Positions 738-4,580 of a DNA stretch of 64,000 nucleotides are shown here, one piece after another. The notes below the pieces were generated by a model. It did no database searches, was not told the DNA's origin, and saw only the letters and a list, made by a program, of their open reading frames with translations. The DNA comes from Flavobacteriales bacterium. GTDB lineage: Bacteria > Bacteroidota > Bacteroidia > Flavobacteriales_C > GCA-002722245. The position numbers and the translations under genes were made by a program. Position 1 is the stretch's first letter. Every line of letters begins with the position of its first letter. The stretch covers positions 109,007 through 173,006 of the forward strand of contig PBEC01000010.1 in assembly GCA_002717515.1 (NCBI GenBank). The letters are read 5' to 3'.

Positions 738-2585
738 ATGAAAGGTATTCTTTTTGCTTTTTTGTTTTGCATTTTATTATCGAGTTGTGAAAATCAACAG
801 GTTACAAAAATCAATTTAACCAATGATGCGTTTTCAAAAATTTCATTTACTCATGATTTAAGGAAATTGAAAAAGGAAACTAAACTTTATTGTTCTTATA
901 AGAGTGATGAGGTACAAGTAAAAGTCTCAGAAAAAAATTACGGATACAACTTAAAAGTTAAGAATAAGGCCACTATTATTTCCAGGAAGAAATATGAAAT
1001 GCATGAGGTTAAGGATTCCTCTCATTTTAAGTCATTGGCGAAGTTAAATGTTTTTCAGGCAATTGCAGGAGAGTCGGGTTATATTGGGATAAAGTCAAAG
1101 TTTTTAAATGTTGAGTTCGGTGGAGAAAAGCAACTTTATTTTTTCCAAGAAGGTTTTGATAAATACATTGTTGAGGGCAACAAAAACAGAGAGGGTATAT
1201 TGTTTACTTTTGATAATAATGCTAAAATTCATTTTACTCCCAAAGGACTGCAAGGAAAAAATATTGATATCAATAAAAGAATTCAAGATTGGTACGATGG
1301 TAAATTGGCTACAGCTTGTTTATTTGATGTTAAAAAGGTTTCAGGATATTTGGCGTTATTCGATGCTTTTTATGGTGGAGAAACTCAAAACCTAGATTTT
1401 GCTTTTTACTTGAATCCGGTTTCCAATTTAATAGAGGTATTTTGTAAAAAAGGCAACGCGTATGCCAAGGAGGAACTTTTAAATAAAATATTGACGGACA
1501 ATTTGATTTTGTCAAAAATTAGCAAACATAAATCAGAGTACAGTTTAAATAAAAAATTAATTGAATCGATCAAAAATCACAAAGTAGGAAAGTATGCGGG
1601 TGAACTGAGTTGGTCAATTTCTGAAAATAAAGAGCATACTCAATCAAAAGACAATTGTTATCCAAATTATGATTTTTCTTCATTCTTTAATTTGGAAGGA
1701 GATAAACTCACTATCGATGGAAAAGAAATTGAAATTAATTCGCCCGTTATTATCCCTTCCGGATATGTTGTAGAGATTAAAAATCAGTCAAAAATCAACT
1801 TAATTCAAGGCGCATTTATCCTCTCGTATTCTCCAGTAGAATTGAAAAATTCGTTTATCGAGAGCTCAGATTCAACAGGAAGAGGTTTTCATGTGATTAA
1901 TGCAAATGCTCTTTCAAGTATTGATTCAGTTATTTTCAGCAATTTAAAAAACTTAGATTTCTTAACCTGGAAACTTCCGAGTGCAGTTACTTTTTATGAA
2001 TCACCAGTTAAGATTTATAACTCTCAATTTTTGGGTGCTAATTGTGAGGATGCTTTAAACATCTTTAGAGCAGATTATCATTTAGAAAGTTCAATAATCC
2101 AAAATACTTTTTCCGATGCATTTGATGCCGATTTTAGTAATGGAATAATTAAGAATTGTAAAATAATTGATTCAGGTAATGATGGAGTTGACGTTTCGGG
2201 AAGTCATGTTGAAATCATTGATTGTGAGTTTATCCGTATTGCGGATAAAGCAATTAGTGCTGGAGAAAATAGTACAATTGATGTTAAAAATGCTTTAATT
2301 AAAGGAGCTTCATTAGGAGTAGTGGCAAAAGATTTATCAAAAGTAAATATCGAAAGTTCAAAAATAACAGAGTCCGAGGTTGTTTTTTGTGCATTTCAAA
2401 AAAAGAAGGAGTTTGGTCCTTCAAAGATAAATGCCTCTGAAATCACATACGATTTGTATAAGGAAGAAAATCTTATTGAAAAAGGATCCTCATTAAAGAT
2501 TGATGGTAAAAAAGTACACAACTACCGAGATGATGTAAGAAAGTATCTTTACGGTAATGAATATGGAAAGAAAACTGTTAAATAA
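738..2585 (+). CDS. Lipoprotein with C-terminal right-handed beta-helix and divergent CotH-like N-terminal region
   Basis: Lipobox 'CILLSSC'; C-terminal half is repeats of short strands (VKIYNSQFLGANCEDALNIF / SSIIQNTFSDAFDADF / GIIKNCKIIDSGNDGVDVSG). N-terminal half has CotH-like 'LALFDAFYGGETQNLDFAFYLNPVSNLIEV'. Confidence 0.6.
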   Translation: MKGILFAFLFCILLSSCENQQVTKINLTNDAFSKISFTHDLRKLKKETKLYCSYKSDEVQVKVSEKNYGYNLKVKNKATIISRKKYEMHEVKDSSHFKSLAKLNVFQAIAGESGYIGIKSKFLNVEFGGEKQLYFFQEGFDKYIVEGNKNREGILFTFDNNAKIHFTPKGLQGKNIDINKRIQDWYDGKLATACLFDVKKVSGYLALFDAFYGGETQNLDFAFYLNPVSNLIEVFCKKGNAYAKEELLNKILTDNLILSKISKHKSEYSLNKKLIESIKNHKVGKYAGELSWSISENKEHTQSKDNCYPNYDFSSFFNLEGDKLTIDGKEIEINSPVIIPSGYVVEIKNQSKINLIQGAFILSYSPVELKNSFIESSDSTGRGFHVINANALSSIDSVIFSNLKNLDFLTWKLPSAVTFYESPVKIYNSQFLGANCEDALNIFRADYHLESSIIQNTFSDAFDADFSNGIIKNCKIIDSGNDGVDVSGSHVEIIDCEFIRIADKAISAGENSTIDVKNALIKGASLGVVAKDLSKVNIESSKITESEVVFCAFQKKKEFGPSKINASEITYDLYKEENLIEKGSSLKIDGKKVHNYRDDVRKYLYGNEYGKKTVK

Positions 2586-3354
2586 CATAACAGATAGTTT
2601 GTCCTCATTTCAACCAATTACATTGAAAGAGATGGATGGTGTGAGTTTGATGAATAGAACAGATACAAAATTTGTGTTTGAAGCGGATTTACTGCCTAAA
2701 ATTTTGGAAGAGGCCAGTCCTTTTTACAGAAGCTTAGAAATTTCCAATAAAAGGTATGCTAATTACAAGACCGATTATTTTGACTCTTTAGACTTTGGGC
2801 TTTATAACGCTCACCATAATTCAAAACTCAATAGATACAAAATAAGGTATCGAGAATACATCGGTTCAGATTTATCCTTCCTGGAAGTTAAGTTTAAAAA
2901 CAATAAAGGAAAGACTTTGAAATCCAGGATACAATCCTGGGTGGATACAGAGGAAATCTCTGACTCTGATAACGATTTTTTAAAAGATAAAACTCCTTTT
3001 TATCGTGAGAATTTAATGCATATTCTTACGAATAATTTCAGTAGAATTACATTGGTTTCCAAAACGGATAAAGAAAGACTTACCATTGATTTTTCCTTAC
3101 AGTTTTTAAAGGAAGATAAGTTAAAACAATTGGGTAATTTAGCAATTGCTGAAGTAAAGCAGGAAAAAGTAGATAGAGATTCTAAAGTAATGTCTATTTT
3201 AAAAAAACATCAAATTAGAGAGGCAAGTTTTAGTAAATACGCTACTGGAGCTGCTTTATTGAATCCTGATTTGAAATACAATAAATTCAAGAAGAACTTT
3301 TTATACTTAAACAAAATACACTTAAATGGAAATATTTGGAATACCGTTGTTTGA
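2557..3354 (+). CDS. VTC-domain protein (polyphosphate polymerase domain family)
   Basis: VTC motifs: 'NRTDTKFVF', 'RYKIRYREY', 'LEVKFKNNKGKTLKSRI', 'RLTIDF', 'AIAEVKQEK', 'SFSKYATG'. Start could also be ATG 2563. Overlaps the upstream CDS end. Confidence 0.85.
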   Translation: MNMERKLLNNITDSLSSFQPITLKEMDGVSLMNRTDTKFVFEADLLPKILEEASPFYRSLEISNKRYANYKTDYFDSLDFGLYNAHHNSKLNRYKIRYREYIGSDLSFLEVKFKNNKGKTLKSRIQSWVDTEEISDSDNDFLKDKTPFYRENLMHILTNNFSRITLVSKTDKERLTIDFSLQFLKEDKLKQLGNLAIAEVKQEKVDRDSKVMSILKKHQIREASFSKYATGAALLNPDLKYNKFKKNFLYLNKIHLNGNIWNTVV

Positions 3355-3928
3355 CATGGAAGATTTTGGAAAATTATTTTTCAAATTCGGAATCGATTTA
3401 ATTTTCCTATTCATAACCGTAAGATTTGTTTTTTACAGAAATAATAGAGACAAAGACTATTTGTTTACGTTCTTTATGTTCAATTTATTAACCTTTTTTA
3501 TCTGTGTCCTCTTAAGAAAGGTACCAATGGAAATGGGATTTGCAATGGGGCTTTTTGCTGTTTTTGGTATTTTAAGATATCGAACAGAAGCTCTTCCAAT
3601 AAAGGAAATGACTTATTTGTTTATTGTCATTGGATTGGCCATGATAAATGCCTTGACAAACAAATCTATAAGTATGATAGAGCTTATCTTCACGGATTGT
3701 TTGATCGTAGGAACTACCTTTGGAATAGAGGCTATATGGTTCAACAATCATGAGAGAAGTAAAAATTTGATTTATGAGAAAATTAACCTTGTTAAGCCAG
3801 AACATGAAGAGGAACTAATTAAGGATTTAAGAGAGAGAACAGGCCTTGATATATTTAAAATCAGTGTTGGTAAAATTGATTTTTTGAAAGATACTGCAGA
3901 TATAAAAATATATTACAAGGAATCATAA
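3326..3928 (+). CDS. DUF4956 domain-containing membrane protein
   Basis: N-terminal TM helices, 'MGFAMGLFAVFGILRYRTEALPIKEMTYLFIVIGLAMINAL' typical of DUF4956. Directly downstream of and overlapping the VTC gene. Confidence 0.85.
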   Translation: MEIFGIPLFDMEDFGKLFFKFGIDLIFLFITVRFVFYRNNRDKDYLFTFFMFNLLTFFICVLLRKVPMEMGFAMGLFAVFGILRYRTEALPIKEMTYLFIVIGLAMINALTNKSISMIELIFTDCLIVGTTFGIEAIWFNNHERSKNLIYEKINLVKPEHEEELIKDLRERTGLDIFKISVGKIDFLKDTADIKIYYKES

Positions 3929-3929
3929 C

Positions 3930-4580
3930 ATGAAGAAATTATATTTCCTTTTTTTAGTATCGGTTATTTTCTCGTGTACAAACTCAAGTGAAACTTGCGA
4001 GTCTAAATGTTCTGAAAAGTGTACTGAGACAAAAAATGAAAGTGACCTTTTGGATTACAGTACACTGCCCTTTAAAAATTCTGAAGGAACCATAACCGCA
4101 GTAGTAGAAATTCCAGCAGGAACCAACCATAAGTATGAATATAATTACGATTCCAAATCTTTTGTTTGTGAGATTCGAAATGGAAAACCAAGAGTTGTGA
4201 ATTACCTTCCCTACATTGGGAACTACGGTTTTATTCCAGGAACATTTATGGATCCTTCTATAGGAGGAGATGGAGATGCTTTGGATGTTTTAATACTCTC
4301 AGAAGCAATGAGTCAAGGTAGCGTTGTTGAGATTAAACCGATAGGGATTCTCAAACTAATGGACGACGGAGAAGAGGACCATAAAGTAATTGCTGTTCCT
4401 GCAAAAGATTCATTGAATACATTAGGAGTAAATTCCTTTGACGAATTACCAGATAATGTAAAAGAAATTTTGAAAACATGGTTTACTTCCTATAAAAGAA
4501 ATACAGATATGGTTTTTCAAAATTGGGAAGGCGATTCTCTCGCAATGTTAGAAATAGAAAAATGGGTTAAAAAGAAATAA
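3930..4580 (+). CDS. Inorganic pyrophosphatase (family I), predicted lipoprotein
   Basis: Signal peptide with lipobox 'VIFSC'; PPase signature 'GGDGDALDVLIL', 'VEIPAG..HKYEY', 'NYGFIPGT', 'EEDHKVIAV'. Confidence 0.9.
   Translation: MKKLYFLFLVSVIFSCTNSSETCESKCSEKCTETKNESDLLDYSTLPFKNSEGTITAVVEIPAGTNHKYEYNYDSKSFVCEIRNGKPRVVNYLPYIGNYGFIPGTFMDPSIGGDGDALDVLILSEAMSQGSVVEIKPIGILKLMDDGEEDHKVIAVPAKDSLNTLGVNSFDELPDNVKEILKTWFTSYKRNTDMVFQNWEGDSLAMLEIEKWVKKK

What the first reader, a model, noticed from the sequence alone, without database searches (positions are those of the whole stretch)
738..4580. Candidate surface polyphosphate/phosphotransfer module: CotH-like/beta-helix lipoprotein, VTC domain, DUF4956, exported pyrophosphatase
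Four genes are packed with overlapping or abutting ends (2557<2585, 3326<3354, 3928/3930), which implies co-translation. The VTC protein keeps the Lys/Arg-rich tunnel residues of polyphosphate polymerases (TDTKF, RYKIRYREY, LEVKFKNNKGKTLKSR, SFSKY). It sits with a DUF4956 membrane protein of unknown function, a secreted lipoprotein with CotH (protein kinase-like) features, and an exported pyrophosphatase with intact metal-binding Asp residues. VTC, CotH and DUF4956 genes are known to co-occur in bacteria without an agreed function. An exported PPase in the same operon suggests that PPi or polyP is handled on the envelope side. Hypothesis: cytosolic polyP (or phosphate chain) synthesis, DUF4956-dependent export, and surface phosphorylation or anchoring linked to the adjacent polysaccharide locus.
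Basis: partly seen in the sequence, partly recalled or inferred. Interest (0 to 1): 0.8.

Follow-up and report, generated by a model that had tools for sequence, protein, structure and literature searches.

The report
Four-gene envelope phosphate operon
A marine Flavobacteriales bacterium carries four packed genes (a polyphosphate-polymerase-like enzyme, a membrane protein of unknown function, a lipoprotein that looks like a worn-out protein kinase fused to a beta-helix, and an exported pyrophosphatase) that stay together in at least three genomic settings, which makes the unsolved function of the widespread CotH/VTC/DUF4956 gene set easier to test.

Summary
Four co-directional genes (738-4580) encode a lipoprotein, a VTC (triphosphate-tunnel) protein, DUF4956 and a lipoprotein pyrophosphatase. 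The lipoprotein has no Pfam CotH hit, but its predicted structure matches CotH kinase first. The two catalytic Asp of CotH are replaced (E215, K238), so it is a predicted CotH pseudokinase joined to a strongly conserved beta-helix. VTC keeps the Vtc4 tunnel residues checked; the PPase keeps its active site.

None of 90 VTC/DUF4956 loci without the beta-helix have the PPase nearby. All 13 short-form loci whose contig reaches that far have it (gaps -34 to 12 nt). Of 39 Bacteroidota CotH-beta-helix loci, 17 have it. VTC and DUF4956 here belong to a different deep clade from those of CotH-beta-helix loci, so two distinct pairs carry the same partners. Of 145 VTC genomes, 141 have CotH (32 of 151 without VTC).

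Best reading, not demonstrated: cytosolic polyP synthesis, DUF4956-dependent export, exported CotH-type proteins as users, PPase removing PPi. A link to the adjacent polysaccharide genes is not conserved for this form. New variant of a known kind.

The parts
713..720 (+). TATATTTG, resembles the Bacteroidota -7 box (TAnnTTTG), 17 bases before the first start codon; possible operon promoter
   Evidence: Sequence: the only such box between the upstream gene and 738; the pattern occurs 0.9 times per kb by composition, so weak evidence
738..2585 (+). Lipoprotein, 615 aa: signal peptide with Cys17, CotH-fold pseudokinase half (about residues 33-290), right-handed beta-helix (about 318-610)
   Evidence: Cys17 invariant in the 20 aligned sequences; hhalign to CotH-beta-helix proteins prob 100, E 2e-111; AF2 pLDDT 90; Foldseek top hits CotH kinase 5jda/5jd9
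834..1607 (+). CotH-like half; E215 (1380-1382) and K238 (1449-1451) sit where CotH has catalytic D228 and D251; E138, K142, E146, R151, N226, E233 retained
   Evidence: Alignment of 63 stand-alone CotH, 66 fusions, 16 short forms
1689..2567 (+). Beta-helix with ladders of invariant residues spaced about 22 apart (D438, D460, D482, D503/K504; then K531/D532, K555/K556)
   Evidence: Invariant in 53 sequences, short and fused; PF13229
2563..3354 (+). VTC / triphosphate-tunnel protein, cytosolic (listed ATG 2557; 2563 likelier)
   Evidence: PF09359; profile matches Vtc4 3g3q E 1e-15; R34 K38 R93 K95 R97 R99 R163 R174 E199 K201 S226 K227 invariant in 31; no hydrophobic N-terminus
3326..3928 (+). 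DUF4956: five predicted helices plus C-terminal alpha/beta domain; R84 and R86 invariant
   Evidence: PF16316; alignments A4, A7; AF2 pLDDT 72, moderate
3930..4580 (+). Family I inorganic pyrophosphatase with lipoprotein signal (Cys16)
   Evidence: PF00719; 13 active-site positions invariant in 28 (E60 K68 E70 R88 Y95 Y99 D114 D116 D119 D145 D150 K152 Y188); clade apart from cytosolic PPases, 100/100

Best explanation
The four genes form one operon for handling polyphosphate or PPi at the cell envelope. VTC polymerises phosphate from ATP in the cytosol. DUF4956 in the inner membrane receives the chain (its invariant Arg pair lies at a predicted cytosolic membrane edge) and passes it outward. 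Outside, CotH-family proteins use or bind it. In this variant the operon's own CotH protein has lost its catalytic Asp residues and is kept as a binding or scaffold lipoprotein with a functional beta-helix. The lipoprotein PPase cleaves the PPi or short chains left over and returns phosphate. Shown by computation: operon structure, families, active-site residues, export signals, co-inheritance with two VTC/DUF4956 clades. Inferred: polymer made, export by DUF4956, ligand of the lipoprotein, substrate of the PPase.
For: Four-gene order conserved with gaps of -34 to 12 nt between DUF4956 and PPase while flanks change in three backgrounds. PPase near the core in 31/88 beta-helix loci against 0/90 others. 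VTC and DUF4956 fall in clade A while CotH-beta-helix loci are clade B, yet both carry related beta-helix proteins and lipoPPases. Vtc4 residues kept, including those equivalent to R264, R266, E426 whose change impairs Vtc4 (PMC9911596). VTC genomes have CotH in 141/145 against 32/151. CotH neighbours have export-type N-termini 54/61, VTC 0/169. DUF4956 near VTC in 97/100 loci. Exported metallophosphoesterase family in 24 of 73 related loci. The own genome has a separate cytosolic PPase.
Against: No PDB relative of DUF4956, so transport is unproven. One short-form locus (L134) keeps lipoprotein, DUF4956 and PPase without VTC, and none was found in the 1.7 Mb held. lipoPPase-clade genes also occur away from VTC. 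VTC loci in general mostly lack the PPase. Counts are not phylogenetically independent; the clade argument amounts to about two independent associations.
Confidence: 0.45

Rival explanations
1. The module modifies or assembles a surface polysaccharide: VTC/DUF4956 supply phosphate for glycan phosphorylation or energy, the beta-helix binds or edits the glycan, and the PPase removes PPi formed outside.
For: The beta-helix fold and Foldseek hits to glycanases and tailspikes; the window lies beside MBOAT and flippase genes; some CotH-beta-helix loci sit with sulfotransferase, CysN-like, PAPS-reductase-domain, CysQ-like and flippase genes; cotH/polyP polymerase/DUF4956 follow pel genes in Gram-positives (PMC7112168).
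Against: Short-form loci in other genomes are flanked by PorP/SprF, TPR-PD40 or adenylosuccinate lyase genes, not glycan genes.
Confidence: 0.2
2. The PPase is a general phosphate scavenger that hydrolyses environmental or periplasmic PPi; its operon link reflects shared phosphate regulation, not a shared pathway.
For: lipoPPase-clade genes occur without an adjacent VTC gene in most of the 17 genomes that have one; marine bacteria are often phosphate-limited (general knowledge).
Against: 13/13 adjacency in the short form, and recurrence in several gene orders with two VTC clades.
Confidence: 0.17
3. Bacterial VTC here is not a polyP polymerase but another tunnel enzyme (tri- or polyphosphate hydrolase, or a PPi-releasing transferase), and DUF4956 is a regulator.
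For: Tunnel metalloenzymes carry out diverse reactions (PMC4641920 abstract); no assay of this clade was found; DUF4956's C-terminal domain matched amino-acid-binding regulatory domains only weakly (E > 0.1).
Against: Best sequence match is catalytic Vtc4, and only VTC subunits matched; the residues checked are kept.
Confidence: 0.15

Closest known systems
Eukaryotic VTC complex (Vtc4 TTM domain with Vtc1/3/4 membrane part)
   Same: Tunnel enzyme with the tested catalytic residues; paired with a small membrane protein with conserved Arg; cytosolic synthesis coupled to translocation is the model
   Different: No SPX domain, no Vtc1-type membrane domain; the partner is DUF4956, unrelated in sequence
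Bacterial cotH / polyP polymerase / DUF4956 gene set (PMC7112168; CotH and polyP polymerase genes also in C. perfringens NELoc-2, PMC11677781)
   Same: The same families, contiguous
   Different: Here CotH is a beta-helix pseudokinase lipoprotein and a lipoprotein PPase is added; no pel genes
CotH kinase (B. subtilis / B. cereus, 5jd9)
   Same: Fold of the N-terminal half
   Different: D228 and D251 equivalents lost; fused to a beta-helix; lipoprotein
Acidocalcisomal pyrophosphatase TbVSP1 (PMC3022644)
   Same: PPase in the compartment that stores polyP; prefers PPi, falling activity on longer chains
   Different: Here a bacterial lipoprotein without the N-terminal extension; analogy only

Membership tests
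VTC/TTM polyP polymerase | VTC domain over curated cut-off | tested here: met
   78 bits, cut-off 23
VTC/TTM polyP polymerase | Tunnel catalytic residues (R264, R266, E426 of Vtc4 from PMC9911596; R361, K458 and the N-terminal Lys from general knowledge) | tested here: met
   R97, R99, E199, R163, K227, K38 by profile alignment; the Lys shortly before the final Ser-Lys of Vtc4 is not kept
VTC/TTM polyP polymerase | PolyP synthesis from ATP | not testable with these tools
   Needs an assay
Eukaryotic VTC complex | SPX domain | tested here: not met
   265-aa protein with VTC domain only
DUF4956 | PF16316 over cut-off | tested here: met
   172 bits, cut-off 30.6
CotH kinase | CotH fold | tested here: met
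   Foldseek 5jda E 4e-9, TM 0.52 by target length; hhalign
CotH kinase | Catalytic Asp pair (D228, D251) | tested here: not met
   E215 and K238; D251 equivalent is Asp in 1 of 16 short forms
CotH kinase | PF08757 match | tested here: not met
   No match at E 10
Family I inorganic pyrophosphatase | Active-site residues | tested here: met
   13 positions invariant in 28 sequences, plus K189 here; assignment to E. coli positions from spacing and general knowledge
Lipoprotein PPase | Export signal with lipobox | tested here: met
   Cys invariant in 28 of 28 aligned; motif and hydrophobicity only, no dedicated predictor

The most novel reading that the evidence does not exclude
VTC-DUF4956 is a bacterial polyP synthase-translocase whose exported polyP serves as phosphoryl donor for extracytoplasmic CotH kinases, where ATP is scarce; the lipoprotein PPase removes the exhausted end product, and the CotH pseudokinase-beta-helix holds substrate or polymer at the surface.
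Probability: 0.25. Interest if true: 0.85.

Novelty: new variant of a known kind. Interest (0 to 1): 0.6.

Why it matters
The cotH/VTC/DUF4956 set is widespread, and no test of its function was found; only three papers in the held library mention DUF4956. If VTC genomes nearly always carry exported CotH (141/145), the question becomes concrete: does VTC-DUF4956 export the donor that CotH uses? The variant described here adds an exported PPase, which points to PPi or polyP outside the cytosol, and a natural CotH pseudokinase, which separates binding from catalysis. Related loci exist in cultured strains (Maribacter stanieri DSM 19891, Xanthomarina spongicola DSM 22637, Dokdonia pacifica DSM 25597).

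Tried and rejected
phmmer of the window VTC alone against PDB gave nothing useful; a profile was needed. Literature searches for DUF4956 with VTC, and for CotH with VTC domain, found nothing. DUF4956 structure was only moderately confident and had no PDB match, so no fold claim is made. Considered and rejected: that the PPase is the genome's housekeeping enzyme (a separate cytosolic PPase exists); that the lipoprotein is an active kinase (catalytic Asp lost); that the adjacent polysaccharide genes are part of the module (flanks not conserved). The sigma-70 promoter scan found fewer sites than shuffles and was not used.

Full report
OBSERVATION. Pfam gives Beta_helix, VTC, DUF4956 and Pyrophosphatase in that order. 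The VTC start is probably 2563 rather than 2557, since homologues begin at the second Met. The window is part of a 2.64-Mb draft genome that is 91.9% complete. Loci of the same genus carry the names of Flavobacteriales MAGs.

THE LIPOPROTEIN. Pfam sees only the beta-helix, even at E 10 for the 20 members of the close family. Homologues of about 870 aa carry PF08757 CotH plus the same beta-helix, and profile comparison aligns the window's N-terminal half with that CotH part. The 615-aa AF2 model is confident (pLDDT 90), and its best PDB matches are the CotH kinase structures 5jda and 5jd9. CotH D228 and D251 are catalytic (PMC7821199); I located them by alignment with 5jd9 and spacing. In 63 stand-alone CotH-type proteins the D228 position is Asp in 50 and His in 13. 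The His cases shown come from split CotH genes of beta-helix loci. The D251 position is Asp in 61. In 66 CotH-beta-helix fusions the first is His in 57 and the second Asp in 48 and Glu in 12. In 16 short forms like the window's, neither is conserved; the window has E215 and K238. The kinase half also diverges faster than the helix among short forms (33% against 53% mean identity; 45% against 49% among fusions). So the kinase half is predicted to be inactive, while the helix, with polar residues invariant at a period of about 22, is under strong constraint.

VTC AND DUF4956. A profile of 31 bacterial VTC proteins matches catalytic Vtc4 best and keeps its tunnel residues; Vtc4 R264A/R266A/E426N is catalytically impaired (PMC9911596). 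DUF4956 lies near VTC, nearly always adjacent, in 97 of 100 loci drawn from the class. Between the two deep clades only a few DUF4956 residues are invariant, including R84 and R86. In yeast VTC, basic residues line the translocation channel (PMC9911596); the comparison is an analogy.

PPASE. The protein has a lipoprotein signal and all 13 positions listed. The lipoPPases form a clade apart from cytosolic PPases (100/100). The own genome and two congeners with the block have both kinds. Two congeners in which the block was not found have only the cytosolic kind.

NEIGHBOURHOOD TEST. VTC occurs in 145 of 296 genomes of the class. Across 100 VTC loci and 80 beta-helix loci, a same-strand lipoPPase near the core occurs in 31/88 loci with the beta-helix and 0/90 without (Fisher about 1e-11, not corrected for phylogeny). 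In the short form it is 13/15, and the two others end at contig ends. In Bacteroidota CotH-beta-helix loci it is 17/39, in several gene orders. VTC and DUF4956 trees place the window's genes in clade A, and the CotH-beta-helix loci in clade B, across a long branch; a few long-branched rows are uncertain. The short-form PPases are a sister clade to most PPases of clade B loci. The same accessory pair has thus joined two VTC/DUF4956 clades. Flanks of the short block differ between the window, its congeners G003/G004 and the Crocinitomicaceae-type genomes.

WIDER LINKS. VTC genomes have CotH in 141 of 145 cases against 32 of 151. Neighbouring CotH proteins carry hydrophobic export-type N-termini in 54 of 61 cases, VTC in none of 169. 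Clade B loci often add an exported metallophosphoesterase (24 of 73). Clade A loci without the helix often add a recurrent gene (55 of 90) whose scanned members are DUF2490, read here as an outer-membrane-type barrel.

MECHANISM. The simplest account is synthesis of polyP in the cytosol, export through or with DUF4956, use or binding by exported CotH-family proteins, and removal of PPi by the lipoPPase. Only the anatomy, the conserved residues and the co-inheritance are shown. Exceptions count against strict dependence: L134 lacks VTC, and lipoPPase genes occur alone elsewhere.

VERDICT. The block is real, conserved and functionally linked. The gene-set kind is already on record (PMC7112168), so this is a new variant.

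Noticed in passing
G000 (own genome): No PPK1 (PF02503) found although all 10 relatives searched have it; Ppx-GppA is present. 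May be incompleteness (91.9%) or may leave VTC as a main polyP polymerase candidate.
   Followed up: partly
L116, L131, L139, L162, L178: CotH-beta-helix/VTC/DUF4956/PPase loci in Flavobacteriaceae sit with sulfotransferase, CysN-like, PAPS-reductase-domain and inositol-monophosphatase (CysQ-like) genes and a flippase, in varying combinations: a possible sulfated-glycan locus.
   Followed up: partly
24 of 73 clade B loci, e.g. L131:7700-8566, L048:4990-7260: Exported calcineurin-like phosphoesterase family (YSFFVAGHTYG motif) recurs beside the CotH-beta-helix module.
   Followed up: partly
55 of 90 clade A loci, e.g. L014:10058-10780: A recurrent gene beside VTC-DUF4956 whose scanned members match DUF2490; two other small exported-looking proteins recur in 51 and 38 loci.
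   Followed up: partly
L134:9965-12917: Short-form block without the VTC gene: lipoprotein, DUF4956 and PPase directly adjacent in the draft genome AG-349-I04.
   Followed up: partly
66 CotH-beta-helix fusions: The D228 position is His in 57 of 66 while D251 is mostly kept: perhaps an altered catalytic mechanism rather than simple loss.
   Followed up: partly
window 4596-6967: MBOAT/DltB-like acyltransferase followed by an overlapping 313-aa gene without a convincing Pfam hit, probably its partner; a separate acyl-transfer pair directly downstream.
   Followed up: no
window 10834-12798 (-): GATase domain fused to a long C-terminal part without Pfam hit that holds a Cys-rich motif (CKVCLLPRTMP...CSNC), resembling sugar amidotransferases by eye.
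   Followed up: no
G131, G099, G266, G242, G062, G190: In one family (f9) the lipoPPase lies 11-31 kb from VTC on the same contig in six genomes, without being adjacent.
   Followed up: no
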